From a virus, in IMG/VR virus record IMGVR_UViG_3300043446_005562, positions 62,001 to 126,000 of that record: a DNA stretch of 64,000 nt. The stretch is one strand, 5' to 3'. This document shows, piece by piece, positions 3,184 through 29,666 of the stretch. Made by a program: the position numbers and the translations under genes. The notes beneath the pieces were generated by a model that made no database searches, had not been told where the DNA came from, and saw nothing but the letters and a program-made list of their open reading frames with translations. Each line of letters opens with the position of its first letter. The stretch's first letter is position 1.

Positions 3184-5130
3184 TTAGGTATTTCCATAGA
3201 ATTTTTGCAAAGTCTCCCTATAATAATCCACGTACTCCTGATCAGCCTGTCTGGTTGTACCAGCTCGTTTTGCAAGATTCGACTGATTTAGATTGCGTAG
3301 AGTTTCAAAATCGTACTTTGAATCTTTTGTTAAATATACTTCATTTAATAACTTTGAGTAGACCTCGGCCAAATATTCCTTTGGTTGATTGTCGATTTCC
3401 TCATTTGCAATTTCCCAAAAATTAGGTGATTCAAAAAAGGCAGAAGTATTAACACATGTCATGGCTAAATCGTCATTACCGCTCTGGCTTCGATAGGATC
3501 CGTTTGAGGATTTACCAAAGGAGCCAAGCTCATGAATTGTCTTGAATTCATTTGGCAAAATTTTATTGACTGCCGCAAGATACTTGAATCTTTCGCAGAA
3601 TTTTATCTTATTGGTCATGGTCAGTTTTAAACCAGGCTTCCAACCCTGAGCGGCTTCAGTATGTTTTGAAAAGACGAGCATGCCGTTCCAATAGGCTTCG
3701 TTTTTCATGATCTTATCCATTACGTACTCGCCCTTGTGGTTTAACTCAATCAACATTCTAACCTTTTCCGGATTAAAAACGTTAAAGATGATGTGCTCTA
3801 GAGAATTGCAGAACTCATTAATGTCTTTCTTATTGGTTCTAAATGTTGCAACCTGCACAAGTGCAAAAATATCGGTTTCATTCTTGATAAAGTCTTTCAC
3901 CTGCTCCAGCATTTTTATGGGTAGAGCAACAAACTTGAATACATTGACAACCGAATAGTCTCGACTCAGGCCATCCGCTGTATCGACCGAGATAACGTAA
4001 TAATTGGGATCGGCTTTAATGTCATCTGGTGATAACTTGTTAAAGTTTGGATGAACCGAAAATCCGTCCAATATGTCTAATCTATCCGGGGTTTGGGCCC
4101 ATTCTGGGATGAGATAGTCAGTCCTGAGATTGAATATTTTTTTAAGATCCTTGGACGGCAATAGCAGCTTATCAGATGAAAAGAACTGGAGCCCATATTC
4201 CTGATTGAAATCTTCCTCTGATCCCAAGTTGGCAATCGTCATCTTCTTCCATTCATCGTCACGGCCAGGTACCTGCCACCAGTCAACCCTAAGCGGCACA
4301 TAGGCGTTCTTTTGTTCAAGCGCATCCATGTAGATCTCATAAAAACGGTTCATTCCGTTCGGCGTGGATGTGATGATAATTTTTGAATTGGTTGAGGCTG
4401 AAATTGTCGGATAGATTGCTCGATAAAAGAAATCCAGATAGGATGGATTGATGTGCGCAAATTCGTCAATATAGAGTACGTGAATCGTAAAACCAATACC
4501 CGTGTTTTTGGTGGTAGTACGCCCAATCAAGCGACAGCCGTTGTCGAACTTCATTGACATTACGTTATTTGAAATACAGCCAGGTTTTAAAAAGAATGGC
4601 AGATTCTCAAATACTGATTTGATTTTATCCAATACCTCTTTGGTCGTGGATGCAATGTTTGCAACAGCTAACACATTTTTATCAGTGTGAAATATGAGAT
4701 ACCAGGCAATGAATACGCCTGACATGACAGTCTTTCCAATTTGTCGACTTGCCATTAGACAATTGAATCGATTGTTCTTAAAGGACCTAATGATCTCTTC
4801 TTGATAATCACGCAGTTTGATCTGTTGAATTCCGTCCTCGGTCATTACCTGCGCGTACTTACTTGCAAAATAGACTGGATCGGCCTTACATCGCTTGATT
4901 TCCTCAAGCTCCTCCGGCGTGTATTCAAAAACAATATTGGCTTTTTTCCAAACAGGATCATTGTCTTTGAACGGCGAATTTTTGATTGTTTTAATATCAA
5001 TCAAACCATTCTCAAAATCAGCCAATAGCTGATCGACTTTTGCGGTGGTCCAAATTGCACTATTCTCTTGATCAAGATTGGATAGCTTGATTCTAGAAGC
5101 TCCACCTGCATTGGTTAAGAAATCTTTCAT
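3184..5130 (-). CDS. 17: Terminase large subunit (T4 gp17-like)
   Basis: A 648-residue DNA-packaging motor protein. The ATPase domain carries a Walker A-type motif MASRQIGKT (about residues 128-136), as in T4 gp17 (SRQLGKT), and a Walker B motif VLYIDEFAHI (about 218-227). The coupling motif ITSTPNG follows near residue 254. The C-terminal RNase H-fold nuclease begins near VISVDTADG (about 376-384), where the first catalytic Asp is expected, and a late acidic segment SGNDDLAMT supplies further metal ligands. The length is close to gp17 (610 aa). The start codon overlaps the stop of the gp16-like gene by four bases (ATGA), which is typical of coupled terminase subunits. It would pump DNA into the prohead and cut the concatemer. 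Confidence 0.95.
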   Translation of the reverse strand: MKDFLTNAGGASRIKLSNLDQENSAIWTTAKVDQLLADFENGLIDIKTIKNSPFKDNDPVWKKANIVFEYTPEELEEIKRCKADPVYFASKYAQVMTEDGIQQIKLRDYQEEIIRSFKNNRFNCLMASRQIGKTVMSGVFIAWYLIFHTDKNVLAVANIASTTKEVLDKIKSVFENLPFFLKPGCISNNVMSMKFDNGCRLIGRTTTKNTGIGFTIHVLYIDEFAHINPSYLDFFYRAIYPTISASTNSKIIITSTPNGMNRFYEIYMDALEQKNAYVPLRVDWWQVPGRDDEWKKMTIANLGSEEDFNQEYGLQFFSSDKLLLPSKDLKKIFNLRTDYLIPEWAQTPDRLDILDGFSVHPNFNKLSPDDIKADPNYYVISVDTADGLSRDYSVVNVFKFVALPIKMLEQVKDFIKNETDIFALVQVATFRTNKKDINEFCNSLEHIIFNVFNPEKVRMLIELNHKGEYVMDKIMKNEAYWNGMLVFSKHTEAAQGWKPGLKLTMTNKIKFCERFKYLAAVNKILPNEFKTIHELGSFGKSSNGSYRSQSGNDDLAMTCVNTSAFFESPNFWEIANEEIDNQPKEYLAEVYSKLLNEVYLTKDSKYDFETLRNLNQSNLAKRAGTTRQADQEYVDYYRETLQKFYGNT

Positions 5131-5871: not shown

Positions 5872-6117
5872 TTAGTTTAATCGATTTTCGTTCTTGTCAA
5901 GAGCCGGGTTTGCAAATATCTTGATCTGTTTCACAGCCTCAATGTGTTCATAAATATAGGTTTCAATGTAACCCATGAAACTGTCTAATACAGGGTTTGC
6001 ATCAAACATTTGATTAGACAGAGTTCTTTTTAATAGACTGCCCTTGTATTTAAAACCTAGGTGTAAGCGTCGGTCCTTTCGATTGTAGATTGTCCAATAG
6101 AGAGAATTTCTTATCAT
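5872..6117 (-). CDS. Small hypothetical protein between gp16-like and gp6-like genes
   Basis: An 81-residue basic protein with an aromatic N-terminal half (SLYWTIYNRKDRRLHLGF) and a helical C-terminal half. It overlaps the stop of the gp6-like gene upstream by four bases (ATGA) and ends eight bases before the gp16-like start, so it belongs to the same operon. It could be a small neck, baseplate or packaging accessory protein. No family is recognised. Confidence 0.5.
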   Translation of the reverse strand: MIRNSLYWTIYNRKDRRLHLGFKYKGSLLKRTLSNQMFDANPVLDSFMGYIETYIYEHIEAVKQIKIFANPALDKNENRLN

Positions 6118-7802
6118 GATAAAAGTCCTAATTTTTTACGAATTGACTTGTCCGGTTTTATTTCAATATTTAATGCGCTCAGCGTGCTATCTGAAATCCC
6201 AGCCTGATAGGCATTACCGCTACGATCTGTCCAACCTCCTCTAATTACTGGAAATTCAGACGGCTTAATAATAATATCGTTAAATTCATCCAGCCCAACC
6301 CGTTTGGTTTCGTCCCGATTTGGATTGTCCTTAAAGGCTTTTTCGTTCAGTTCTGACAGAATGGCCACGCTAACAGAATCGACTCCGTTTATCTCTTCAA
6401 TGATTTTAATTAAATCGCTCTTTGGCACACGGTCATTACGATTAAGTTTTATAAAGTAATTACCGACCGCGTCTGCAATATCCGATTTAATAATATCGGT
6501 TGCAACATCGTCAAATGCAACAACGCTGACGTTTAAAACATAGCGAGTAATTATGGGATCCAATAGATTAATCTCGGATGAAATCATCTTGGTACCAGAT
6601 TTTTCAATGTATTTTAAAAGTTCTTTCTTTTGAAACTCCGTCAATTTGAATTTGGTTAGAGATAGTTTAAAGTAGTCAGTGCCGGTTTTAAATAATTTAG
6701 AGACGTCCGGTACCAGAAATAGATTGATCATGCGAGAATCAAGTTCATCCAAAAATACTCTAACCGTTGAGAACATCTGCATTTTATGTAGCAGCACTTC
6801 ATAATTATCAACGTTAACGAGCGCAAAATTCTTTGAGGCTTTTGGCGCAATCAATCTGGTCAATTCAATCTCTTCCGGATCAACTCCAAAACTCGGTGGA
6901 CTTATTGTAAAAATATCAAAATACTCGTTCATATTGACCTCTTCGCCGATTGGAGAAAAGGCTGTTTCCGCGAATGTGAATTGAACTTGGCTTGCACTAT
7001 CGACCAAAACATTACCGCCAGCCCCTTCTGATACAAGATACTCGACGATTATTTCGGATCCAGCTGGTGGAATTTTACCAAATGAACCGTTTCCAAAATA
7101 AATGTCCAGACCGTTTGTTATGCCGGTTTTGGCAATAAAACCTTTACCACCGCGTGGAATGTCCAATAGCGAATCGTATTTTGTCCATTGTTCGCCATTA
7201 ACGTACACGTTAACTCGGAAATGATCAATGTAGTAGTTATATGGATGGCCTAACTGATAGCTCTCCAGCGGCTGACCCTTACCAGTAAATGTTTGGGATT
7301 CAATTTGACCCTGGCGCAAGTTAAAAATTGCAACAGTTTCATCGCCAGTTAAGTTTAGTCTAATCTCGTCCTGTGGTAATTCAATGACGTAGGTTAGGTT
7401 ATTATTGGAACAGGTTAATTTAAAAAGATCGTTAAGTAGAACCTTTGTTGCCGGTGGATTAATATTGGGTTTTCTAACTATTCTAATTTGAGAGGTTGCA
7501 CCGATTGCTCGACTTGGATTGTGACCTGCTAAACTTGCTAATGAATAGATTGAAGAAGGCCGAGTTGCCTCGTTAATGTTAAGTTCGGTGATTGAGTCCT
7601 CAATGTAATAAAAAATTAACTGACTTAAATTTTCAAAAACAATTAGTAATTGACCAAATGGCGAAGATGCCGTGAATATGGTCTTTGCCTGCTTGAATCT
7701 TTCCTGTAGAAATGTGATTGTCTCTCCAAGAATATCATTTATTCGGATTTTTAAGCTGGTAAAAAGCCTAAGGGAAGTATTTTGACTTGATAAATTGGCC
7801 AT
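6114..7802 (-). CDS. 6: Baseplate wedge protein (T4 gp6 / baseplate J-like)
   Basis: A 562-residue protein matching the gp6/baseplate-J family in layout. The N-terminus has helices around FTASSPFGQLLIVFENLSQL. The central part contains the pattern FGNGSFGKIPPAGSEIIVEY (about residues 240-259), a hallmark of the J-like fold. The C-terminal part (NRNDRVPKSDLIKIIEEING and after) corresponds to the J-like domain that pairs between wedges. In T4, gp6 forms the inner iris of the baseplate and links the six wedges. A late-type promoter motif lies 20 bases upstream of the ATG, and the gene leads the packaging operon. The length is slightly below T4 gp6 (660 aa). Confidence 0.82.
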   Translation of the reverse strand: MANLSSQNTSLRLFTSLKIRINDILGETITFLQERFKQAKTIFTASSPFGQLLIVFENLSQLIFYYIEDSITELNINEATRPSSIYSLASLAGHNPSRAIGATSQIRIVRKPNINPPATKVLLNDLFKLTCSNNNLTYVIELPQDEIRLNLTGDETVAIFNLRQGQIESQTFTGKGQPLESYQLGHPYNYYIDHFRVNVYVNGEQWTKYDSLLDIPRGGKGFIAKTGITNGLDIYFGNGSFGKIPPAGSEIIVEYLVSEGAGGNVLVDSASQVQFTFAETAFSPIGEEVNMNEYFDIFTISPPSFGVDPEEIELTRLIAPKASKNFALVNVDNYEVLLHKMQMFSTVRVFLDELDSRMINLFLVPDVSKLFKTGTDYFKLSLTKFKLTEFQKKELLKYIEKSGTKMISSEINLLDPIITRYVLNVSVVAFDDVATDIIKSDIADAVGNYFIKLNRNDRVPKSDLIKIIEEINGVDSVSVAILSELNEKAFKDNPNRDETKRVGLDEFNDIIIKPSEFPVIRGGWTDRSGNAYQAGISDSTLSALNIEIKPDKSIRKKLGLLS

Positions 7803-10487: not shown

Positions 10488-12815
10488 CTATACGAGGCCT
10501 AACACAGTCTTTAATTTATTGATGACTTCGGTTGCCTCAATTGATTTAGAACACTCAAACATTCGGTCTGTGCCCTTGTGTATGGGACACCAATTCCAAT
10601 CGCCTGGATCGAGTCGATGCGTGTTGAAACAGCCCGAGCACTTGTTGGAAGGTGCGCATATTCGGTGAGTGTTATGAAGAGTCTCAGTGTAGTCAAATGA
10701 AAAACCTGAAATTAGAATCAATGGAGTAGTCGTTGCCCAGGCAAGCCAGCTTAAACCGCTGCCTATTCCAACAAAGGCTTGCGACTCTTCCAATTCCCGA
10801 ATCACGGTTGAGAGCGGACCTGACTCAAGTTTTCTAATACCGGTTGGATGAGAATTGCCCATGAACCCGTCCTCCTCTCGAGAGAGTAATACCACTTCAT
10901 AGCCTCGCTCATTACACCAATCAACAACCTCTTGCCAGCCGGTTGGATTATTCCAATACTTTGCTTGGCAGGTGCCGTGAATTCCAATTGCGATTTTCTT
11001 CTTCTTTTCAACCTTTGGAATCTGAATGAGCGGTCTGGTCTCTTGATAGGCTAACCCTAAAATATCAAATGCGCATTTTTGCATAGGCTGGTCCTTGACC
11101 TCCCTGACATTTCGGGCCAGGTCAATTTCGTTCTGGTCATTGTAGTACCAGCCGATGTTGTACATCGCAACAATATTGTCCACCACCTCGCCCGGATTTA
11201 CAAATTCAATTTCCGGATACTGGTCCTTGAACATGTAATTCATGTGCGTTGAACAGACCACCTGGCAACCGTGCTTCTTTCTAAACTCTTCAACCGCTGG
11301 AAACCAGGCTAGGCTGTCTCCAAGCGAGCTTGAATCTAATGAAATGTAGACCCTGCGATCTTTGAGCACAATCGGCTCGTTAACAATCATTCTGCCGCTC
11401 TTGACGTCCGTGACTTGCACTCGCCAGTCGGTGTAAAACTTGCGGCTTGCCTTGACCCACATGTTTCTTTTGATTGTATCGCGATGAATGGTCCTACCTG
11501 AGGTTTGATCTATGAATTCAACTAGGTATTCGTCCTGAGGTCCCCCGGTTATCTCTACGTGAGGCCCGCCAACGAAATGATAGTTAATAACGAATTCTGC
11601 TTCGCGACTCTTGTTCACCTCTCTGATGTGATCTGACCGTTTAGCAATATGATTAGCGGCAAGCTCAGCAACCCTGTCCCAATTAAAATCCGAATGGATT
11701 TGAGCAGATTCCCTAACCGCCTTTTTTCGATATTCGGCTGAATTTTGATACACGTCCAGCATGACCCGGCCCAGGTCCTCAAAATCGGGCTCATAATAAT
11801 TGCCGCTTGCCCCATTGAAATGATTGTAGTCCGCGTCCCTTGCTGGTACCTGACCCAGTATTTTAACTGGATGACCCTTACCCTCAGCAAATTCAAGCTG
11901 ACCTGAGCAGTTTGAGTAGATTGCTGGCACTCCGCATGCCATTGCCTCGATTAGAGGTAGATTCCAACCCTCAGAGCGGGCACACGATAAAAAGGCACCA
12001 CATGATTTTAAAAGGTTAACATACTCTTTTCTGTCTGGAAAATGAATCACCTTGATACGGTCATCGTTGAGTCCAAAATGGGCTAGCCGTTTTTCGGTTG
12101 TCTCAAGGCCATCGCCTGAAAATGGATTATCGATTGAGACAATGAGGTCGACAGGCTCTTCTTTTTTGAATGTTTTTAAAAAGGTCTCAACAATCTCTTT
12201 GGTTGATTTTCGGTAATCCCAACGGCCGGCTAAAAAGAATTTAAAACGACCGTCCTGGGTCAATTCGTGTTTGGCTCCCGGGTCCGGATAGAACACTTGA
12301 GTGTCCACCCCCTCCGGAATAACAAAGATTTTTTCGGCTGGATAGCCTTGCGCAATGGTACAGTCGCGTTGCCATTTTGAAGGCACCCACATTTCATCAA
12401 ACTCCAGCAGTCGCTTAAAGAAATTTTCAGGCTGTTGAGTGGTCTCCCAAACGTTATAGGCTATTCGATAGTTCTGGTAATCGTGATAGAAGTAATGATG
12501 ATCGGTTTCATTTAGCACCAGGTCAATCTCGGCCTCACCCGGATTGGGCCAGGCCTCGTACATTTTAAACTCCATTAATCTCTGGTCCGGCGTCCACAGG
12601 GATTGCTCATGCAGCAAGGTCTTCATCCGGTCCGTTAGATAGGGTTCCTGATTGTGGGGCTCTTCTGACATGCCCTGCCAGGTTTTACCCACCGTAAAAT
12701 TTCTGATCTCAAGAGGCACTCTTTCGGAGAGCTTTGTAAAAAAGGATTGTGCGTGATTGTTGTAACCGGTCGAGCCTATGAATGAGGTATGAACCTTGAT
12801 TTTTGGAAGAGTCAC
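10488..12815 (-). CDS. Fused glycosyltransferase: GT4 domain + TibC/BAHT-type O-heptosyltransferase
   Basis: A 775-residue two-enzyme protein. Residues 1 to about 395 form a GT-B fold, family GT4-like: IPEGVDTQVFYP, the nucleotide-site region FFLAGRWDYRKS, and the E-x7-E type motif SEGWNLPLIEAMACGVPAI (about 281-299). Residues about 405-775 match the bacterial autotransporter heptosyltransferase family (TibC/AAH): an N-terminal beta region, SLDSSSLGDSLAWFPAVEEF, and a four-cysteine end CSGCF...WCPIH...FECSKSI, which in TibC binds iron. TibC-type enzymes put heptose on Ser of repetitive surface proteins. The GT4 half could extend the sugar. The start is GTG. It is last in the fibre operon, after an 80-base gap. 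The donor sugar cannot be read from sequence. Confidence 0.88.
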   Translation of the reverse strand: MTLPKIKVHTSFIGSTGYNNHAQSFFTKLSERVPLEIRNFTVGKTWQGMSEEPHNQEPYLTDRMKTLLHEQSLWTPDQRLMEFKMYEAWPNPGEAEIDLVLNETDHHYFYHDYQNYRIAYNVWETTQQPENFFKRLLEFDEMWVPSKWQRDCTIAQGYPAEKIFVIPEGVDTQVFYPDPGAKHELTQDGRFKFFLAGRWDYRKSTKEIVETFLKTFKKEEPVDLIVSIDNPFSGDGLETTEKRLAHFGLNDDRIKVIHFPDRKEYVNLLKSCGAFLSCARSEGWNLPLIEAMACGVPAIYSNCSGQLEFAEGKGHPVKILGQVPARDADYNHFNGASGNYYEPDFEDLGRVMLDVYQNSAEYRKKAVRESAQIHSDFNWDRVAELAANHIAKRSDHIREVNKSREAEFVINYHFVGGPHVEITGGPQDEYLVEFIDQTSGRTIHRDTIKRNMWVKASRKFYTDWRVQVTDVKSGRMIVNEPIVLKDRRVYISLDSSSLGDSLAWFPAVEEFRKKHGCQVVCSTHMNYMFKDQYPEIEFVNPGEVVDNIVAMYNIGWYYNDQNEIDLARNVREVKDQPMQKCAFDILGLAYQETRPLIQIPKVEKKKKIAIGIHGTCQAKYWNNPTGWQEVVDWCNERGYEVVLLSREEDGFMGNSHPTGIRKLESGPLSTVIRELEESQAFVGIGSGLSWLAWATTTPLILISGFSFDYTETLHNTHRICAPSNKCSGCFNTHRLDPGDWNWCPIHKGTDRMFECSKSIEATEVINKLKTVLGLV

Positions 12816-12895: not shown

Positions 12896-13657
12896 TTAAG
12901 TACTGATTATGAAGGCTGGGCATCTATAAAAATCAACACCGGCTTGGCCCTCCCAGACGTTATTTGGAGAGTTCTTTGCTGCATCAAGAAACTGGGCCTG
13001 ATGAGCTAATGATTCACCGGTATGATGATCGAGTATGTCTAAATTAACGTTGTAACCGTTGTTAAGATCCTGATTTACAATGGACCAGTAATATCTGACT
13101 CCGCCGTTTGCTCCACTGGTCGATTGGCTTGTACCATTACCACCGGCTGCAATATTGCCGTAAAAATCTACTCCGCCACCGGCTGGCCACATTTGAGATG
13201 GTGGCGGCGCAAACGTTATGCCAGGGATTTGAAAAATCCACTCACTCCAAAGACGTATGTTAACATCAATATTGGTGTTTGGATCATTGGTTACAACTTC
13301 AAGGCGCCCTCGATTGTCAAAGGGCCAGTGATCATATCCTTTAAAATCTCCCCATCGTATTTTGCCATTGCTCCACGCATAATTATAGATATTTTCGCCA
13401 GATGTGCTATTGCGATTAATATAATAAGAAGTTCCTGAATATGTTCCAGCCGTAATGTAGCCGTTCATTGAGCTATGGGGAGCAGGATTCGAAGAATCTA
13501 GATCAAATTGTGCAATATCGCCTGCCGCAAGACTGGCTGTTCCGTTTTGAGTGAATGCTCTGATCAAACTATTGGTCGAGGTTGTGCCGACTGATGTGCC
13601 GTTCCATCCAACTCTCACGCTGGAGCCGCTCTGCATTACGTATGGACTTGTTGCCAT
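12896..13657 (-). CDS. Virion/fibre-associated protein, unknown
   Basis: A 253-residue protein rich in Gly, Ser, Asn, Thr and aromatic residues, with no membrane segment. Stretches such as INRNSTSGENIYNYAWSNG and FPPP-like APPPSQMWPAGGGVDF look like extracellular beta-sandwich or receptor-binding domains. Its ATG overlaps the stop of the 2810-residue fibre by one base, so it is made together with it. It could be a distal tip, a lectin-like receptor-binding protein or a fibre chaperone. I recognise no family. Confidence 0.5.
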   Translation of the reverse strand: MATSPYVMQSGSSVRVGWNGTSVGTTSTNSLIRAFTQNGTASLAAGDIAQFDLDSSNPAPHSSMNGYITAGTYSGTSYYINRNSTSGENIYNYAWSNGKIRWGDFKGYDHWPFDNRGRLEVVTNDPNTNIDVNIRLWSEWIFQIPGITFAPPPSQMWPAGGGVDFYGNIAAGGNGTSQSTSGANGGVRYYWSIVNQDLNNGYNVNLDILDHHTGESLAHQAQFLDAAKNSPNNVWEGQAGVDFYRCPAFIIST

Positions 13658-16600
13658 TAACTTAGTTTATTTTTTAAGTCCTCAATCTGGGCCTGCTGTT
13701 CCTTGATTGCCTCAATCAGGACCGAAACCAGATTTGCATAGGAAACTGCTTTGGTACCGTCCGGATTGGTGAAGACCACCTGCGGGAATGCCGCTTCCAT
13801 CTCCTGCGCAATGACTCCAGCGTAAACTCTAGTCTGGTCTTCTTGATCGTTACGTGTGAAGGTTACACCGCGCATTGCCTTTACCTTAGCCAGGGCGTCT
13901 GTGATGGTTTCAACATTATCCTTAACCGATCGATCTGAAAAGGCTATAATATTACCGGCTGCATAGATATCTCCAGTACCACCGCCGACCGTACCAACTT
14001 CAAGCGTATAACCTGGAGTTGCACCAGCATTCACGCTTAATCTCGCATTGGTTTGATCCCAATAGAGTTGATTCGTATCATCAACTGCTGCACCCGTTGC
14101 TGGGTAATAAGCAACATAGCCTGCATTACCGGAGTTTACCGTACCCGAACCTCCACCGCCGGAAATCGTAACGTCCGCCTGGCTACCCGAAGCGGCAACG
14201 GTTGCGCCCGACACAAAGTTAATAGAGGTAGCGCTTGAAACAATGGTGGTTCCAGCTTGTTTAACCGAGACAGCTGATGCGGTTCCAGAAGTTCCGCTTG
14301 AGCCAGAAGTTCCTGAAGAACCCGCTGCTCCTGTTGCGCCGCTTGTTCCTGATGATCCAGAAGTTCCTGACGAACCTGCGGGACCAGTCGCTCCAGTAGC
14401 ACCGCTTGTTCCTGAAGAACCTGAAGTTCCTGAAGAACCTGAAGTTCCTGACGAACCTGCTGCACCGGTTGCTCCGCTTGTACCTGAAGAACCTGAAGTT
14501 CCTGAAGAACCAGCTGCACCGGTTGCTCCGCTTGTGCCAGAAGAACCTGAAGTTCCGTCTTTTCCATTAAATACCCATGATACTGTGTAGTAAGAGGTTG
14601 TGTTCACTATACCAGTTCCAGCGAGTAGGGTATTTAATTGTATGTCGTAGTATGTTGTCTGATTTGTGAAAGTTCCAACTTTCCATGCTCCAATTGCTGC
14701 GTTGTTGCCAACCTCTGTTATTTGAAGATAAGAGACATTTCCTGCTGCGAGCATTGTGCCCAATGTATTAAACCAAGTTGCGTATGCTGTGCCAAATGTG
14801 TCCTGTCTTGAAATACTTAATTTAGTAGCTGTCCCAAGGTTAGTTGTGTCTAATTTGAATTGACCGAGACCTGGTGAAGAATATGCAAGCGCACTATTAT
14901 CAAACCTCCATCGACCTGAGTTTGAACCGTCATTACCTGCTGCTCCAGCCGCTCCGGTTGCTCCGCTTGTTCCACTAGAACCTGAAGTTCCCGAAGAGCC
15001 TGAAGTTCCAGAAGAACCTGCTGCTCCAGTAGCACCGCTTGTTCCGCTACTTCCACTTGTTCCAGAAGAACCGGCTGCACCGGTTGCTCCACTTGTGCCA
15101 GAAGAACCCGAAGTTCCACTAGAGCCTGATGATCCGGAAGTTCCTGAAGAACCTGCCGCACCGGTTGCTCCGCTTGTTCCTGAAGAACCGGACGTACCTG
15201 ACGAACCAGCAGGACCTGTTGCTCCGGTTGCTCCACTTGTACCAGAAGAACCAGATGTTCCGCTTGATCCAGAAGAACCAGAAGTTCCGCTAGAGCCTGA
15301 TGATCCAGAAGTTCCTGAAGAACCTGCTGCACCAGTTGCGCCGCTTGTTCCAGAACTGCCTGATGTGCCAGAAGATCCTGAACTACCTGATGTGCCTGAG
15401 CTTCCAGAAGAACCTGATGTTCCACTACTTCCACTTGTTCCAGATGAACCTGCAGGACCAGTCGCTCCAGTAGCACCACTAGTTCCTGAAGAACCTGAGC
15501 TACCTGACGTACCTGAACTACCGGACGTTCCCGAAGAACCGGCTGCTCCAGTCGCTCCACTCGTACCTGAAGAACCCGAAGTTCCTGAGCTACCGGCAGC
15601 ACCAGTTGCTCCGCTAGTTCCTGATGAACCAGATGTTCCGCTTGAACCAGACGAGCCGCTAGTTCCCGATGAACCTGAAGAGCCTGATGTTCCACTAGAG
15701 CCTGATGTACCGCTTGCTCCACTTATACCGCTAGTTCCGCTTGAACCGGATGAACCGCTTGTTCCTGAAGAACCGGCAGCACCCGTTGCTCCACTCGTAC
15801 CTGAAGAACCTGAAGTTCCTGAGCTGCCGCTTGAACCTGAAGTTCCCGAAGAACCTGAACTGCCGCTTGTTCCGCTAGAACCGCTAGTTCCCGAAGAACC
15901 TGCTGCACCAGTTGCACCGCTTGTTCCAGAAGAACCAGATGTTCCCGAAGAACCCGCTGCTCCGGTTGCTCCACTAGTTCCTGATGAACCGCTAGTTCCT
16001 GAAGATCCTGAAGAGCCGCTAGTTCCTGATGAACCGCTTGAGCCAGATGTTCCCGAGCTTCCGCTAGTTCCTGAAGAACCTGAGGAACCGCTAGTTCCGC
16101 TTGAACCTGAAGTTCCAGATGAGCCAGATGTTCCTGAGCTACCGCTTGTTCCACTTGAACCACTTGTTCCTGAAGAACCGGCTGTACCGTTTTTACCATT
16201 AAACCACCAGCTAATTACATGTTCATTACCGTTAGTTAAAGTTCCAGTGCCGGCATTCAAGTTTAAATCAACTTGTACAACGTTTCCAACTGGAGAACCA
16301 ACTGCTGTGATTGCATAAACTCCTCCAATTCCAGTAGTTAATTCAAAAATTTCTAAGTATGCTTGATTACCTGCAGTTACTTGAGTTTGAATAGCCGACC
16401 ACCATTGAGTTGAATTGAATGAACTTGGTCTGTATGCCGTTATATTTACATAAAATTTGTTAATTAAACCGACGTTCGTTGTAGCAGTTACACCCGCATA
16501 ATAGTTAATGTTTGTAGAACCTGGTGTAGTTGAAGCGCTTGAATTGAATATCCATGAAACGCCGTTTCCTATTGAACTTGCACCCGAAGTACCTGAGCTG

Positions 16601-22121: not shown

Positions 22122-25100
22122 TTATCGTGGTCGATTAGTTCCGACCAAGAAATTTGCCCAACCGCTCAATGATGGAGGTAGGGCATTCCAGCTACCTGCT
22201 GGAAAAGGAGTTTGTCCACTAGATACAACGGTTCCACCAATCCAATAGTCATCGGTATGTGTCACATTATCGTTGAATAAAGTGTATGAAGAGACTTCTT
22301 CTGTGTGGAAATAAACGTCATCCAACAGAATACCTTTACTTGTACCTTGAGGATCTGTGTATATGAAATTTGGAGAACCTCCAGTTAGTCCAAGCGAAGC
22401 AAATGTCGTTTGGTGAATACTTAATCTGGATTCAACAGTATATGAAGAATTTAGATCTAAAAGCATCCAACTTTCGCTAGAAGCAGTTGCTGTTCCTGGG
22501 GTAAGTACGCTGTTTGGACGGCGGTTATACATTTCAAAATGGCAACCTCTAATGTATGCAGTAGACTGATCTAGCGATACAAGATAGCAGTACACATTAT
22601 TGTTTGCGCCAGTATCAACAATCTCACAATTTTCCAAATACAGAGATGAATATCTTGCTAAAATTGCATAGGCCCCGTTTGATGAATGGTCTACCTGTAT
22701 TTTGATATTATTCATCTTTAGTGAGCCGTTTGCTACAAATATAGCGTTCATAGTCGGCACTGATATTACGCTGTTATAACGACCCGATCCAGTTATTGTC
22801 AACTCAGCAGCAGTCAACCAAGTATTACCAGCAGAGCCTGATACAGCTAATGTTACGCCTGGCTCAAAGTAGAGAGATACATTGTATGAACTCGATACAG
22901 TTACCGTAGTCGATTCAGTATAGGCTCCTCTAAATACATGAATTGTATAGCTACCTGCTCCAAGAGCAGAAAGGCCATTTAAAGCGCCGTTGATTGTTTG
23001 CCAAGGTAAATCTAATCTACCTAATTGTGCAGTAGTATTATTTCCATTCGGATCAACAAATAAAGTTTGAGCATATCCTATTGCTTGGAAAGAGGTTCCA
23101 CTTGTTCCGCTTGATCCTGAAGTTCCACTTGAGCCAGAAGAACCCGATGTGCCTGACGAACCAGAAGTTCCAGAAGATCCGCTTGAACCTGACGTTCCAG
23201 AGCTTCCACTGGTTCCTGACGAACCACTAGTTCCGCTTGAGCCACTAGAACCAGATGTTCCTGAAGATCCTGAAGTACCTGACGAACCAGACGAGCCAGA
23301 TGTTCCGGCTGAACCTGACGTACCAGATGAACCTGAACTACCTGATGTTCCGGAAGAGCCTGAGCTTCCACTAGTTCCACTAGAACCAGATGTACCACTT
23401 GAACCTGATGAACCTGAAGTTCCTGAGCTACCTGATGTTCCAGATGAGCCACTGGAACCGCTTGTGCCCGAAGAACCTGAAGTTCCACTAGATCCCGAAG
23501 ATCCAGATGTTCCCGAAGAACCACTTGATCCAGATGTTCCGGACGATCCACTAGTTCCTGATGAACCTGAACTACCTGATGTTCCCGAAGAACCGCTAGA
23601 GCCTGACGTACCTGAGCTTCCACTAGTTCCTGATGAACCTGAAGTTCCTGAGCTACCTGATGTTCCAGATGAGCCACTTGAACCTGAAGTGCCACTAGAT
23701 CCTGAAGATCCTGAAGTTCCGCTTGAGCCACTAGTTCCACTAGAACCAGATGTTCCTGAAGAACCGCTAGATCCTGACGTACCGGAGCTTCCACTAGTAC
23801 CTGAAGAACCGCTACTACCGGATGTTCCCGAAGAGCCCGAAGTTCCGCTACTTCCTGAAGATCCTGAGGTACCAGACGATCCTGAACTACCTGATGTTCC
23901 GCTTGAACCGCTTGTTCCTGAAGAACCTGAACTACCTGATGTTCCCGAAGAACCTGAAGTACCACTTGACCCTGATGTACCTGATGAACCTGAGCTTCCG
24001 CTAGTACCAGATGAACCACTTGAGCCTGAAGTTCCTGAGCTTCCGCTAGTTCCTGATGAACCTGATGTACCGCTTGAGCCAGATGTACCGCTTGAACCTG
24101 AAGAACCACTTGTTCCGCTTGAACCTGAAGAACCACTTGTTCCGCTTGAACCTGAAGAACCTGATGTACCTGATGAACCTGAGCTTCCTGAAGTTCCGCT
24201 TGAACCGCTTGTTCCTGAAGAACCCGAGCTTCCACTAGTTCCGGATGATCCACTTGAACCCGACGTTCCCGACGAACCGCTTGTTCCACTTGAACCAGAA
24301 CTTCCGCTTGTTCCAGAAGAGCCTGAGCTTCCTGAAGTACCACTTGAGCCAGATGTTCCACTAGAACCACTACTACCTGAAGTACCAGATGATCCCGATG
24401 TACCGGAAGATCCACTTGTTCCACTAGATCCACTTGAGCCTGATGTACCAGATGATCCTGAAGTACCAGATGAACCGCTTGTTCCGGATGAACCTGAGCT
24501 TCCTGAAGTACCGCTTGAACCTGATGTTCCTGAGCTTCCGCTAGTACCTGATGAACCTGACGAACCGCTTGTTCCGCTTGAACCGCTTGAACCTGATGTC
24601 CCAGAAGATCCACTAGTTCCTGACGAACCCGATGTACCTGAACTTCCTGATGAACCTGATGTACCAGAGCTGCCTGATGTTCCAGATGATCCCGAAGATC
24701 CTGAAGTACCAGATGAACCGCTGCTTCCTGATGTGCCCGAAGAACCAGAGGTTCCACTTGAACCTGATGTACCTGAGCTACCACTAGAACCGCTAGTACC
24801 GGATGAGCCGCTAGAACCCGAAGTTCCTGATGAACCTGAACTTCCACTAGTTCCGCTAGATCCACTTGAGCCGGAAGTTCCTGATGAACCTGACGTACCC
24901 GATGATCCGGAAGTTCCACTTGAACCGCTGCTACCTGATGAACCTGATGTTCCGCTAGAACCTGATGTTCCTGATGAACCTGAACTGCCGCTTGTTCCTG
25001 AAGAACCGCTTGAACCTGAGGTTCCTGAAGAGCCTGAACTTCCAGAAGTACCGGATGAACCGGCTGTTCCGCTAGATCCTGATGTTCCAGATGAACCACT

Positions 25101-28100
25101 CGTACCCGAAGAGCCTGAGCTACCGGATGTACCAGATGAACCGCTTGATCCAGATGTTCCGGAAGATCCACTAGTTCCTGAAGAACCACTTGAACCTGAA
25201 GTTCCGCTACTTCCTGATGAACCTGCTGTACCAGAGCTGCCAGATGTTCCAGAAGATCCTGAGCTTCCGGAAGTGCCAGAGGATCCACTAGAACCTGAGG
25301 TTCCTGAGCTTCCGCTAGTTCCTGAAGAACCCGAAGTTCCGCTAGAACCGGAACTACCTGCTGTACCGGAACTTCCACTAGTTCCTGACGTACCTGAGCT
25401 ACCAGATGTACCGGCTGATCCACTTGTTCCAGAAGAACCGCTTGAGCCCGAAGTTCCGCTAGATCCACTTAAACCTGATGTTCCAGAGCTTCCACTAGTT
25501 CCTGACGAACCACTTGAGCCCGATGTTCCTGACGAACCGCTTGTTCCGGAGCTACCTGAAGTCCCGGCGCTACCGCTGGTCCCTGATGAGCCTGAGCTTC
25601 CACTAGTTCCACTTGAGCCGGATGAGCCAGAGCTTCCCGATGTTCCAGAAGAACCACTAGAACCAGAAGTTCCTGACGAACCGCTAGTTCCTGAAGTACC
25701 ACCACCTACTATGAGATGTGCATGAAAGAACGTTTGAGAGCGTTGATTACTTCCGAAAATAGTGATATTGCTTGAATTTCCACTGTATACTGTGAAATCT
25801 ACATAATCGGTTGTACCGTTCATGTAAATTATTTTATCGTTACCCTGTGTTAAACCAACTGTTGTTGTTATTTGATTTTGCCAAATCGCCTCTTGGCTAT
25901 TTCCATTCTTACGAATTTGCGAATTGTATTGATTTGTGGTTATAGCGCCAGGATCAAATAAAACTTGTAGAGTTATTTGATAATACCCTGAAATGGTCGG
26001 TTTAAATTGATAGGTTGACTGATTCCACCAGTTATTTGGATCAAAATCATCAATGAATTGGATTACAGTATCGCTATTAGGTGTTACTGTTTGGTTAGCA
26101 GCTAGGTAACCCTGAACAACATAATTAGAGGCAACTAAACCAGTTGGAGAAGTTCCACTAGTTCCAGAAGAACCGGAAGATCCGGATGTTCCGCTTGAAC
26201 CTGATGAGCCAGACGTTCCAGAGCTTCCCGATGTACCAGAGCTTCCGCTAGTTCCAGATGAACCTGAACTACCGCTGGTACCGCTTGAACCAGAACTACC
26301 TGACGTACCCGAACTACCCGAAGAGCCAGATGTTCCACTTGAACCTGAAGTTCCGGCGCTACCGCTTGTTCCAGAAGAACCGCTAGTTCCGGAGCTACCG
26401 CTAGAACCTGAAGTTCCAGAAGAACCCGCTGTTCCAGAAGATCCACTGCTACCTGAAGTTCCTGAAGAACCGCTTGACCCTGATGTTCCAGAGCTTCCAC
26501 TTGTTCCACTACTTCCTGATGAGCCAGATGTTCCTGAAGAACCACTACTTCCACTTGTTCCTGAACTACCTGATGTACCACTACTTCCTGATGTTCCAGA
26601 GCTTCCGCTTGTTCCACTTGAACCTGAAGAGCCTGAAGTTCCGCTTGAGCCAGATGTTCCTGACGAACCGCTTGAGCCCGAAGTTCCAGACGAGCCAGAT
26701 GTTCCTGACGAACCGCTAGTTCCTGAGCTTCCTGATGTTCCTGAAGAACCTGAGCTTCCAGAAGTTCCTGATGAACCACTTGTTCCTGATGAACCGCTTG
26801 TTCCTGAAGAGCCCGATGTTCCGGAAGATCCACTTGAACCTGAGGTTCCAGATGTTCCGCTTGCGCCGCTTGCGCCGCTAGTACCAGAAGTCCCGGATGA
26901 CCCTGAGCTTCCAGAAGTTCCTGAACTGCCTGAAGAACCTGATGAACCTGAGCTTCCTGAAGTACCACTTGAGCCAGACGTTCCCGAAGAGCCCGATGTT
27001 CCAGAAGATCCTGAACTTCCGCTAGTTCCTGAAGAGCCTGAACTACCGCTGGTACCGCTTGAACCAGAACTACCTGACGTACCTGAGCTTCCGGAAGTTC
27101 CAGAAGAGCCTGAGGTACCACTACTACCACTCGAACCTGAGGTACCAGATGAACCCGAAGTTCCTGACGAACCGCTTGAGCCTGACGTACCACTACTACC
27201 GGATGAACCTGAAGTACCTGAACTACCACTAGTTCCTGAAGAACCGGCTGTTCCAGATGAACCAGAGCTTCCGCTAGTTCCCGAAGAACCTGAGCTGCCT
27301 GAAGTACCAGAAGAACCGGATGATCCACTTGAACCAGATGTTCCCGAAGAACCCGAGCTTCCACTGGTTCCTGAACTACCAGAGGTTCCTGAACTGCCTG
27401 AAGAACCTGACGTACCTGAACTACCAGAGGTTCCACTAGAACCTGAAGTTCCTGAGCTGCCGCTTGAACCTGAAGTTCCCGAAGAACCTGAGCTTCCAGA
27501 AGTTCCTGAGCTGCCTGATGTTCCCGACGATCCTGAACTACCAGAGGTTCCACTTGAACCTGAAGTACCTGAGCTGCCTGATGTTCCGGATGAACCTGAG
27601 CTTCCACTAGTTCCACTAGAACCTGAAGTTCCCGAAGAACCTGAGCTTCCAGAAGTTCCTGAGCTGCCTGATGTTCCCGACGTACCCGAAGAACCTGAAG
27701 TTCCGCTAGAACCTGATGTACCTGAGCTGCCTGATGTTCCAGATGAACCTGAGCTTCCACTAGTTCCACTAGAACCTGATGTACCAGAGCTGCCGCTTGT
27801 TCCCGAAGAGCCTGACGTACCCGAAGAACCTGAAGTTCCGCTAGAACCTGATGTACCTGAACTGCCTGATGTTCCAGAGCTTCCAGATGTACCAGATGAA
27901 CCTGAAGTTCCGGCAACTTGGCCTACTGAAGTCAATACAAATGAATAATATGAATTGCCTTCCGTGTAAAAATCGATTGAGTGAGCATTGTTATCTAAAT
28001 TATTAAGATAGATTCTGACTCTCATTCGGTCAGTTGGATTAATAGTGGTTGTCGGTAAAGTTATGTCTAGCGTATTTTCAGCTGGCACAACGGCTGACAC

Positions 28101-29666
28101 CCAATCTAATAATTGAAGACCTGTGCTACCTATTAAGGTATTATATGAATTTCCTGCACTATCGCATAAATCGATTTGTGCATAGACCTCAATACTATCG
28201 TTTGAGGCCTGTTTAAGTAAATGAAGATGAAATCTTTGAGTTCCTCCAGGAATAACTGCAAATCCTAATTGATCGGTAATGTATTCTTGAACAAGAACAT
28301 TCATGGCATTGCCGGATAAAGCAGTTGTCTTTATTTGTTGGGCGGCACCAGACGGAGTGATTTCTAATTTCTTAAGTCCTGAAATACTTGAACTTACTGA
28401 TTGATTGAAATAATATACTTGGCCGGCTGATATACCTTGCGGACCAGTTGCGCCAGATGTTCCTGAAGAACCTGATGTGCCAGAGCTGCCAGATGTTCCT
28501 GAAGAACCTGAGCTGCCGCTAGTTCCACTTGAGCCTGAAGAACCGGATGTTCCAGAGCTTCCGCTTGTTCCTGACGAACCGGAGCTACCGGATGTTCCCG
28601 AAGAGCCAGAGGTTCCACTTGAACCTGAAGTACCTGAGCTTCCTGATGTTCCAGAAGATCCTGAACTACCACTAGTTCCGCTAGATCCTGAAGAACCGGA
28701 TGTTCCGGATGAACCGTCTATACCAGAGGTTCCCGAAGAACCTGAAGTGCCTGAACTTCCTGATGTTCCAGAACTGCCAGACGAACCAGAGGTTCCACTT
28801 GAACCTGAAGTACCAGACGAACCGGATTCCCCACTTGTACCAGATGAACCTGAAGTTCCAGATGAACCGTCTATTCCGCTTGTTCCAGAAGAGCCGCTAG
28901 TACCAGAAGAACCAGACTCTCCGCTTGTACCTGAAGAACCTGAAGTCCCAGATGAACCTGAACTTCCAGAAGTTCCGCTAGAGCCAGACGTTCCGCTTGA
29001 ACCAGAACTGCCTGATGTACCAGAAGAACCTGAAGTTCCACTTGATGTTGATATACTTCCTAAAGTTTGACCTATATAATAAAATCCTCTGATGTATGGA
29101 TTTACGCTACCGTAGGTTGTCTGCAAATAGGTTACCATTGAATCCGATAAAAGAAGTAATCCATTATCGTAATTGAATACCCAGCTTACTTCTGAACCAG
29201 CATTCGTTGTTGTAGCAATTTGCGTGCCACCGGCAGTAGGATCGCCGTTCCAAAATTCAGCAGTCCATCCAATTGATGGTGAACCGTTTGCTTGTAAAAT
29301 CTTTTGAGGTTGAATCCAATCTAGGATTTGGGTTGTAATATCGCCGTATGTTGAGGCAGCGACCCATGTTGTGTTATTACCAGTTATGACTTGCGTTAAT
29401 CTTACGGCATTTCCACTAGAATAGGCATTTTCAACTATACCGTCAAGCGGATTGCCTGAGCCCAATAGGGCAAGAGCAGCTGCTTTATTTGCAACTGGAT
29501 TAGCTTTGACCTGATCAAATTGAGTTAGAACCCGATCGGCAGAAATATTTGGATTGAATGCAAATTTTGCTTCATACCAATTGAAGTTTGAGGCTGAATC
29601 TATTACGTTCGCAGCCTGGACCTTAAATACGAGTTTTAACCTTTCATTATCGGTATATCCAGCCAT
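22122..29666 (-). CDS. Giant collagen-like Ser/Thr fibre protein with beta-helix end
   Basis: A 2514-residue protein with alternating globular and Gly-X-Y parts. Residues 1 to about 208 form a head with a segment resembling other fibre heads. Repeat 1 spans about 208-405 and includes charged triplets GES and GID. A jelly-roll-like domain starts at GPQGISAGQVYYF (about 405-588). Repeat 2 spans about 588-1170. A second jelly-roll or C1q-like domain spans about 1172-1320 (SGYYQITLQVLF). Repeat 3 spans about 1320-2190. The end (about 2190-2514) looks like a right-handed beta-helix: LFVDPNGNNTTAQLG, then repeated short strands ending in asparagine-rich turns, as in pectate-lyase-like phage depolymerase or receptor-binding folds. 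It lacks an S74 domain. It lies 32 bases upstream of the 2810-residue fibre gene and probably forms a second trimeric fibre. Confidence 0.85.
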   Translation of the reverse strand: MAGYTDNERLKLVFKVQAANVIDSASNFNWYEAKFAFNPNISADRVLTQFDQVKANPVANKAAALALLGSGNPLDGIVENAYSSGNAVRLTQVITGNNTTWVAASTYGDITTQILDWIQPQKILQANGSPSIGWTAEFWNGDPTAGGTQIATTTNAGSEVSWVFNYDNGLLLLSDSMVTYLQTTYGSVNPYIRGFYYIGQTLGSISTSSGTSGSSGTSGSSGSSGTSGSSGTSGSSGSSGTSGSSGTSGESGSSGTSGSSGTSGIDGSSGTSGSSGTSGESGSSGTSGSSGTSGSSGSSGTSGSSGTSGSSGTSGIDGSSGTSGSSGSSGTSGSSGSSGTSGSSGTSGSSGTSGSSGTSGSSGSSGTSGSSGTSGSSGSSGTSGSSGSSGTSGSSGTSGSSGTSGATGPQGISAGQVYYFNQSVSSSISGLKKLEITPSGAAQQIKTTALSGNAMNVLVQEYITDQLGFAVIPGGTQRFHLHLLKQASNDSIEVYAQIDLCDSAGNSYNTLIGSTGLQLLDWVSAVVPAENTLDITLPTTTINPTDRMRVRIYLNNLDNNAHSIDFYTEGNSYYSFVLTSVGQVAGTSGSSGTSGSSGTSGSSGTSGSSGTSGSSGTSGSSGTSGSSGTSGSSGTSGSSGSSGTSGSSGTSGSSGTSGSSGTSGTSGSSGTSGSSGSSGTSGSSGTSGSSGSSGTSGSSGTSGSSGTSGSSGSSGTSGSSGTSGSSGSSGTSGSSGSSGTSGSSGTSGSSGTSGSSGSSGTSGSSGTSGSSGSSGTSGSSGSSGSSGTSGSSGSSGTSGSSGSSGTAGSSGTSGSSGTSGSSGSSGTSGSSGSSGTSGSSGTSGSSGSSGTSGSSGTSGSSGTSGSSGSSGTSGSSGSSGTSGSSGSSGTSGSSGTSGSSGTSGSSGSSGSSGSSGTSGSSGSSGTSGTSGASGASGTSGTSGSSGSSGTSGSSGTSGSSGTSGSSGTSGSSGSSGTSGSSGTSGSSGTSGSSGTSGSSGSSGTSGSSGTSGSSGSSGTSGSSGTSGSSGTSGSSGTSGSSGSSGTSGSSGSSGTSGSSGTSGSSGSSGTSGSSGSSGTAGSSGTSGSSGSSGTSGSSGTSGSAGTSGSSGTSGSSGSSGTSGSSGSSGTSGSSGSSGTSGSSGTSGSSGTSGSSGSSGTSGSSGSSGTSGTSPTGLVASNYVVQGYLAANQTVTPNSDTVIQFIDDFDPNNWWNQSTYQFKPTISGYYQITLQVLFDPGAITTNQYNSQIRKNGNSQEAIWQNQITTTVGLTQGNDKIIYMNGTTDYVDFTVYSGNSSNITIFGSNQRSQTFFHAHLIVGGGTSGTSGSSGTSGSSGSSGTSGSSGSSGSSGTSGSSGSSGTSGSAGTSGSSGTSGSSGTSGSSGSSGTSGSSGTSGLSGSSGTSGSSGSSGTSGSAGTSGSSGTSGTSGSSGTAGSSGSSGTSGSSGTSGSSGTSGSSGSSGTSGSSGSSGTSGSSGTAGSSGSSGTSGSSGSSGTSGSSGTSGSSGSSGTSGSSGSSGTSGSSGTSGSSGTAGSSGTSGSSGSSGTSGSSGSSGTSGSSGSSGTSGSSGTSGSSGSSGSSGTSGSSGTSGSSGTSGSSGSSGTSGSSGSSGTSGSSGSSGTSGSSGSSGTSGSSGTSGSSGTSGSSGSSGTSGSSGSSGTSGSSGTSGSSGSSGTSGSSGTSGSSGTSGSSGSSGTSGSSGSSGTSGSSGTSGSSGTSGSSGSSGTSGSSGTSGSSGTSGSSGSSGTSGSSGTSGSSGTSGSSGSSGTSGSSGTSGSSGSSGTSGSSGSSGTSGSSGTSGSSGSSGTSGSSGSSGTSGSSGTSGSSGSSGTSGSSGSSGTSGSSGSSGTSGSSGSSGTSGSSGTSGSSGTSGSSGTSGSSGSSGTSGSSGSSGTSGSSGTSGSSGTSGSSGSSGTSGSSGTSGSSGSSGTSGSSGSSGTSGSSGTSGSSGSSGTSGSSGTSGSSGSSGTSGSSGTSGSSGTSGSSGSSGTSGSSGSSGTSGSSGTSGSSGTSGSSGTSGSSGSSGTSGSSGSSGTSGSSGTSGSSGSSGTSGSSGSSGTSGSSGTSGSSGSSGTSGSSGTSGSSGSSGTSGSSGTSGSSGSSGTSGSSGSSGTSGSAGTSGSSGSSGTSGSSGTSGSSGSSGTSGSSGTSGSSGTSGSSGSSGTSGSSGTSGSSGSSGTSGSSGTSGTSFQAIGYAQTLFVDPNGNNTTAQLGRLDLPWQTINGALNGLSALGAGSYTIHVFRGAYTESTTVTVSSSYNVSLYFEPGVTLAVSGSAGNTWLTAAELTITGSGRYNSVISVPTMNAIFVANGSLKMNNIKIQVDHSSNGAYAILARYSSLYLENCEIVDTGANNNVYCYLVSLDQSTAYIRGCHFEMYNRRPNSVLTPGTATASSESWMLLDLNSSYTVESRLSIHQTTFASLGLTGGSPNFIYTDPQGTSKGILLDDVYFHTEEVSSYTLFNDNVTHTDDYWIGGTVVSSGQTPFPAGSWNALPPSLSGWANFLVGTNRPR
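23095..25705 (-). repeat. Gly-X-Y (GSS/GTS) tract 3 of the 2514-residue fibre
   Basis: About 870 residues of GSS/GTS triplets between the second globular domain and the beta-helix end, with occasional GTA, GSA and GLS. The word pattern is the same as in the other giant fibre, so the two tracts share an origin or exchange sequence. Confidence 0.88.
26150..27910 (-). repeat. Gly-X-Y (GSS/GTS) tract 2 of the 2514-residue fibre
   Basis: About 585 residues of GSS/GTS triplets. One block near 26850-26890 reads GASGASGTSGTSG, the same interruption that appears in the large tract of the other fibre, which suggests duplication or recombination between the genes. Confidence 0.85.
28450..29045 (-). repeat. 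Gly-X-Y tract 1 with charged GES and GID triplets
   Basis: About 200 residues. Here the GSS/GTS pattern is broken by GES and GID triplets (near 28710-28920), the only charged residues inside any of the long repeats. They may set chain register in a trimer. Confidence 0.8.

What the first reader, a model, noticed from the sequence alone, without database searches (positions are those of the whole stretch)
10488..12815. GT4 glycosyltransferase fused to a TibC/BAHT-type O-heptosyltransferase in a phage
The C-terminal 370 residues hold the family hallmarks, including the four-cysteine iron-type site (CxxC, WCP, FEC). BAHT enzymes usually sit beside autotransporters that they hyperglycosylate on Ser. 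Here the neighbour is a Ser-rich fibre, so the same logic may have been taken into a virion. The fused GT4 half suggests that a disaccharide is built.
Basis: partly seen in the sequence, partly recalled or inferred. Interest (0 to 1): 0.85.

Follow-up and report, generated by a model that had tools for sequence, protein, structure and literature searches.

The report
Phage enzyme glycosylating collagen-like tail fibres
A virus of bacteria carries a two-part sugar-attaching enzyme that is inherited together with giant tail fibres built almost only of glycine, serine and threonine in a collagen-like three-residue rhythm, which suggests the virus sugar-coats these fibres and opens a family of bacterial protein-glycosylating enzymes to a new kind of target.

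Summary
The 775-aa protein lies on the minus strand. Its C-terminal half scores above the curated cut-off of the TibC/Aah model and carries all four iron-finger cysteines. The predicted fold matches TibC (TM 0.86). The N-terminal half is a GT4 with its EX7E motif.

This is a recurrent phage family, not an oddity. About 70 relatives were fetched, with GT4-TibC and methyltransferase fusions.

The main new result is the partner. The fibres are Pro-free G-X-Y repeats (GSS/GTS). Of 64 phage contigs chosen only for such fibres, 31 carry the TibC family; of 46 chosen for proline-type collagen repeats, none do. The two features also come and go together within the window's own terminase lineage. In methanotrophs and two gammaproteobacterial MAGs, TibC-like genes sit beside secreted G-T-S proteins. 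A tree separates this clade from the autotransporter clade with full support.

The "O-heptosyl" label is the weak part. Arg286, which reads adenine in TibC, is Val here and lost in most phage members. No ADP-heptose pathway gene was found. Donor, disaccharide and triple helix are inferences.

Best explanation: a TibC-like Ser O-glycosyltransferase hyperglycosylating collagen-like phage stalks, the sugar probably extended by the fused GT4.

The parts
10488..12815 (-). GT4-TibC fusion glycosyltransferase, 775 aa
11633..12785 (-). GT4 half (about aa 11-395); EX7E motif E282/E290, R202/K203 invariant in 32 aligned relatives
10500..11606 (-). TibC-like half (aa 404-771): D500 (catalytic base D110 in TibC), T615/K619 (T226/K230), W690 (W305), V671 replacing R286, G685 replacing P300
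10551..10640 (-). iron-finger cysteine region C726, C729, C743, C755
13657..22089 (-). collagen-like fibre A, 2810 aa: 747 G-X-Y triplets, longest run 573, 411 GSS and 282 GTS, 3 Pro; C-terminal region resembles a chaperone-type fibre end (by eye)
22122..29666 (-). collagen-like fibre B, 2514 aa: 554 G-X-Y triplets, 314 GSS and 221 GTS, 1 Pro
12896..13657 (-). 253-aa ORF between fibre A and the transferase; no Pfam or PHROG match
3184..5130 (-). T4-type terminase large subunit (places the locus in the virion gene cluster)
6114..7802 (-). baseplate wedge subunit

Best explanation
The protein is a two-domain glycosyltransferase of a phage-type branch of the TibC family. Its TibC-like half most likely attaches a sugar to the Y-position Ser of the Pro-free collagen-like repeats (G-S-S and G-T-S, about 1,240 such Ser in the two fibre genes) of the phage's own tail fibres, inside the infected cell, turning them into densely glycosylated stalks. 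The fused GT4 half most likely extends that sugar. SHOWN here: family, fold, catalytic and metal-ligand residues, recurrent co-inheritance of enzyme and repeat, similar gene pairs in bacteria. INFERRED: that the repeat is the acceptor, Ser rather than Thr, order of action of the two halves, glycan purpose (stiffening or protecting a proline-free stalk, or altering adsorption). NOT KNOWN: the donor; loss of the adenine-reading Arg argues against assuming ADP-heptose.
For: TIGR04414 above cut-off, TibC fold, D/T/K/W active-site residues and Cys4 kept. Contigs of at least 30 kb chosen only for (G-S/T-S) repeats carry TIGR04414 in 31/64, against 0/46 for GPx-repeat contigs (p about 1e-9; significant in each of three length bins). 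Generic GT4 genes do not show this bias (4/33 against 9/44). Among relatives by terminase, 13/16 TibC+ records have the repeat and 0/7 TibC- records do; one record has a broken TibC gene and no repeat. From the other side, 27/31 TibC+ contigs have the repeat against 0/20 GPx contigs. Methylobacter and Methylococcaceae genomes hold a two-gene unit, secreted G-T-S/T/A repeat protein plus stand-alone TibC-like gene; a gammaproteobacterial MAG has a TibC-like gene flanked by two GTS/GSS-tailed proteins. TibC itself modifies Ser, not Thr, at N-S-G and T-S-A sites (PMC4358343), close to the phage [ST]-S-G context.
Against: No biochemical evidence. TibC's known acceptor is a beta-helix inside a dodecamer ring; a G-X-Y stalk is structurally different. 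33 of 64 repeat-bearing contigs had no TIGR04414 hit (contigs are fragments, but some phages may do without it). Association contigs are not phylogenetically independent. One marine clade (L008-L014, L032, L033) lost all four Cys yet keeps the fusion, and several of its loci have the repeat nearby.
Confidence: 0.72

Rival explanations
1. It is a true O-heptosyltransferase (BAHT) that uses host ADP-heptose, acting on the fibre.
For: Equivalog-level TIGR04414 score, D110/T226/K230/W305 and Cys4 conserved. Some related phage proteins keep Arg286.
Against: Arg286, whose mutation abolishes or largely diminishes TibC activity, is Val here and V/T/I/L in most phage members, while it is Arg in 78/91 bacterial sequences. 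P300 is Gly. PF01467 hits in the phage are not HldE-like and PF00483 gave none. The host may supply the donor, so this is not excluded.
Confidence: 0.25
2. It modifies the host envelope (LPS or S-layer glycan) for superinfection exclusion or serotype conversion; the fibre link is by gene order only.
For: GT4 and GT9-type enzymes often act on LPS; weak hits to heptosyltransferase I.
Against: It lies in the structural cluster; TibC homologues act on protein Ser; association with the repeat holds across contigs even when genes are far apart, and in bacteria as gene pairs.
Confidence: 0.08
3. Co-occurrence is a by-product of phage lineage: large T4-like phages of some hosts happen to carry both genes.
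For: Many positives are large contigs of related phages; near-identical contigs inflate counts.
Against: Presence and absence track each other within one terminase lineage, in every length bin, and in unrelated bacteria; generic GT4 genes do not show it.
Confidence: 0.15
4. The two domains act on different targets (for example GT4 on DNA or another virion protein) and the fusion only co-expresses them.
For: In some phages the two domains are on separate genes or separated by other domains.
Against: Fusion or adjacency recurs in many divergent loci, often with FkbM or other methyltransferase domains as in glycan-tailoring clusters.
Confidence: 0.2

Closest known systems
TibC/Aah bacterial autotransporter heptosyltransferases (BAHT, TIGR04414; PDB 4RAP/4RB4; PMC4358343)
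   Same: Fold (TM 0.86), catalytic Asp, Thr/Lys phosphate site, Trp, four iron-finger Cys, hydrophobic thumb tip (F265/V266 align with F651/M652 in the HMMER alignment), partner gene with many Ser.
   Different: Phage-encoded; Arg286 and Pro300 replaced; fused to GT4; partner is a collagen-like fibre, not an autotransporter; separate clade with 100% SH-aLRT support.
Mimivirus collagen glycosyltransferases (L230 and the galactosylhydroxylysyl glucosyltransferase, PMC9546862)
   Same: A virus that encodes both collagen-like proteins and its own enzyme to glycosylate them.
   Different: Those act on hydroxylysine in eukaryotic-type collagen (own knowledge plus abstract); here the expected acceptor is Ser in Pro-free repeats and the enzyme family is different.
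Phage collagen-like fibres with G-P-X repeats (e.g. E. coli prophage proteins, PMC3368898)
   Same: G-X-Y periodicity in phage proteins.
   Different: Those carry Pro and in our sample never co-occur with the TibC family (0/46); these are Pro-free with Ser at Y.
phrog_2170 phage glycosyltransferases and Streptomyces phage GT genes
   Same: Match the GT4 half (23-25% identity).
   Different: No TibC half matched; function unknown.

Membership tests
TIGR04414 / TibC fold family | score above curated cut-off | tested here: met
   260.5 against 200 bits
TIGR04414 / TibC fold family | TibC fold: N-terminal beta-barrel, GT-B core, iron finger | tested here: met
   Foldseek TM 0.86 over 378 columns; PF21129 TibC_1st itself is subthreshold (14.7 against 27 bits)
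TIGR04414 / TibC fold family | four iron-coordinating Cys | tested here: met
   C726/C729/C743/C755; iron binding itself not testable
BAHT (ADP-heptose, autotransporter) | catalytic D110 and T226, K230, W305 | tested here: met
   D500, T615, K619, W690
BAHT (ADP-heptose, autotransporter) | R286 that contacts adenine | tested here: not met
   V671; R in 78/91 bacterial sequences
BAHT (ADP-heptose, autotransporter) | partner autotransporter gene | tested here: not met
   neighbours are phage structural genes; partner is a collagen-like fibre
BAHT (ADP-heptose, autotransporter) | falls in the clade with TibC | tested here: not met
   opposite side of a branch with SH-aLRT 100
BAHT (ADP-heptose, autotransporter) | dodecamer, thumb F265/V266 | tested here: inconclusive
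   hydrophobic pair F651/M652 by the HMMER alignment, shifted by one in MAFFT; oligomer not testable
BAHT (ADP-heptose, autotransporter) | ADP-heptose as donor | not testable with these tools
   no PF00483 hit and no HldE-like PF01467 hit in the phage; host could supply it
GT4 retaining glycosyltransferases | EX7E motif and GT4 profile match | tested here: met
   PF00534 52.6 bits against 26.4; E282/E290 invariant in 32 relatives
Collagen-like proteins | long uninterrupted G-X-Y | tested here: met
   573 consecutive triplets in fibre A
Collagen-like proteins | Pro/Hyp-rich triple helix | tested here: not met
   3 Pro in 747 triplets; helix formation itself not testable

The most novel reading that the evidence does not exclude
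A previously undescribed prokaryotic glyco-collagen system: a TibC-derived subfamily with a changed donor densely O-glycosylates Ser in proline-free (G-S/T-S)n stalks, the sugars taking the place of hydroxyproline in stabilising the fibre; it is widespread in phages and present in methanotrophs and other bacteria.
Probability: 0.35. Interest if true: 0.9.

Novelty: new variant of a known kind. Interest (0 to 1): 0.78.

Why it matters
It would give the TibC/BAHT family a second, non-autotransporter class of acceptor and explain why giant proline-free collagen-like fibres exist in phages. It predicts which virions are glycoproteins, and it warns that automatic annotation as 'autotransporter O-heptosyltransferase' is likely wrong for a whole clade. 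Cultured Microcystis phage Mel-JY01 carries a homologue, and Methylobacter luteus carries the two-gene version, so the idea can be tested at once by glycoproteomics.

Tried and rejected
Phage-made ADP-heptose: PF01467 found a HAD/nucleotidyltransferase-like and a large ligase-like ORF, not HldE (identity judged by eye); PF00483 none; PF01370 found one 303-aa sugar epimerase, best but subthreshold hit GalE (167.7 against 262.3 bits), with HldD models well below cut-off. 'Cytidylyltransferase' annotated beside the Mel-JY01 homologue: weak PF01467 hit only, no NCBIfam hit, so not taken as heptose synthesis. Generic glycosyltransferase richness as cause of the association: rejected. Recent DNA duplication as the whole reason for the repeat: rejected, since 67 and 47 different 9-mers encode GSS and GTS in fibre A. 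No paper in the held library links this enzyme family with phages or collagen-like repeats; subscription literature is not covered.

Full report
WHAT IS THERE. The ORF at 10488-12815 is real, on the minus strand, 775 aa with a GTG start. Residues 404-771 match TIGR04414 hepto_Aah_TibC at 2.2e-77 and 260.5 bits against a curated cut-off of 200, and PDB TibC 4RAP at 7.7e-57. The N-terminal half matches GT4 models and phrog_2170. An AlphaFold2 model made with 32 relatives (pLDDT 86, pTM 0.59) matches TibC at TM 0.86; GT4 enzymes follow in the hit list. The low pTM means the relative placement of the halves is unsure. The record is a 252,618-base virus contig with a T4-type terminase and baseplate genes beside the locus.

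ACTIVE SITE. Residues proven in TibC (PMC4358343) map as D110=D500, T226=T615, K230=K619, W305=W690 and Cys339/342/358/370=C726/C729/C743/C755. Two that read the donor do not: R286, which contacts N1 of adenine, is V671, and P300 is G685. Across 80 phage-type sequences plus the window, position 286 is V or T in 48, R in 15 and other residues in the rest; in bacteria it is R in 78 of 91. So the catalytic machinery is kept but the donor pocket differs, and 'heptosyl' should not be carried over.

A FAMILY. 71 IMG/VR loci encode relatives, about half with the same GT4-TibC order at 44-63% identity, plus Microcystis phage Mel-JY01 at 47%. Other arrangements include GT4 and TibC on neighbouring genes with FkbM or other methyltransferase domains, and a 1519-aa protein with GT8, GT25, GT4, TibC and FkbM matches.

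THE PARTNER. The two large ORFs upstream of the enzyme gene (13657-22089 and 22122-29666, minus) are not merely Ser-rich: they are G-X-Y repeats. Fibre A has 747 triplets, 573 in one run, 411 GSS and 282 GTS with 3 Pro; fibre B has 554 triplets. About 1,240 Y-position Ser are offered (700 + 541). The codons are diverse (67 different 9-mers for GSS in fibre A), so the protein pattern, not the DNA, is what is kept.

ASSOCIATION TESTS. (a) 120 loci were drawn by a DNA pattern for GTSGSSGTSGSSGTS alone and 120 by a GPxGPx pattern; ORFs were checked (44 of the 46 long GPx records have a verified proline-type run). In records of at least 30 kb, TIGR04414 is found in 31/64 against 0/46, p about 1e-9, and p below 0.03 in each of three length bins. 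(b) GT4 in general shows no such bias: 4/33 against 9/44. (c) Relatives drawn by the window's terminase: 16 of 23 records carry the TibC family; 13 of these have the repeat and none of the 7 without TibC do, p 0.0005. Two of the three exceptions have TibC close to a contig end, and the third has a TibC gene broken by a stop. Many of the 23 are near-copies; the count of independent lineages is under ten, so the p-value is optimistic. (d) 27/31 TibC-bearing contigs have the repeat against 0/20 GPx contigs.

BACTERIA. A scan of GTDB genomes gave 77 loci. Those in the autotransporter clade show no such repeat within the flanks held. In the phage-type clade 9 of 15 do by pattern, and Methylobacter luteus by eye. 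In Methylobacter and Methylococcaceae a secreted protein with G-T-S/T/A repeats lies directly upstream of a stand-alone TibC-like gene. In a gammaproteobacterial MAG (L368) the gene is flanked by two proteins with GTS/GSS tails, and L369 is similar. A tree of 134 sequences separates the autotransporter clade with TibC (55 rows) from the phage-type clade (79 rows) at SH-aLRT 100 (quick method, long branches present; some close relatives of the window such as L002 were not in the set). Some MAG contigs may themselves be phage.

MECHANISM. TibC glycosylates Ser but not Thr, at N-S-G and T-S-A. The phage repeat offers [S/T]-S-G every three residues. The most economical reading is that the TibC half glycosylates Y-position Ser of the fibre before assembly and the GT4 half extends the sugar. 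In collagen, Y is where hydroxyproline stabilises the helix; a Pro-free stalk might need sugars instead. That last step is inference from general knowledge of glycosylated collagens and is not tested.

STATUS. Member of the TibC fold family: yes. Member of BAHT in the strict sense (ADP-heptose, autotransporter): defining features R286, partner and clade were tested and not met. It works like a BAHT; it should be named a TibC-like fibre glycosyltransferase. Novelty: new variant of a known kind. I found no prior report in the open library, which does not cover subscription journals.

Noticed in passing
L008-L014, L032, L033 (marine phage loci): A clade of the fusion protein has lost all four iron-finger Cys (replaced by T/P/E, Y, Y, E/K/Q) while keeping D, T, K and W; a natural iron-free TibC-like enzyme.
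   Followed up: partly
L016:10286-11161, L018:10289-11167, L028:10289-11164: A second, 292-aa TibC-like gene without the beta-barrel follows the GT4-TibC gene, with the G-S-S fibre next or near on the opposite strand.
   Followed up: partly
L358, L359, L361, L362 (Methylobacter, Methylococcaceae): Two-gene unit of a secreted Pro-poor G-T-S/T/A repeat protein and a stand-alone TibC-like gene in methanotroph genomes.
   Followed up: partly
L368:6530-9899: Gammaproteobacterial MAG with a TibC-like gene (Arg286 kept) between two lipoprotein-like ORFs ending in GTS/GSS repeats and a short Asp-rich tail.
   Followed up: partly
L041:5244-9800: A 1519-aa phage protein with GT8, GT25, GT4, TibC and FkbM matches in one chain.
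   Followed up: no
L514:1489-2400 (own record, about 198-199 kb): A GalE-like sugar epimerase of 303 aa lies among structural genes of the window's phage; possible source of the donor sugar.
   Followed up: partly
G159:C1:32081-32992 (record of L481): TibC-family gene broken by a stop in a terminase relative that also lacks the repeat fibre; looks like joint decay.
   Followed up: partly
window 12896-13657: 253-aa ORF between fibre and transferase without any family match.
   Followed up: no
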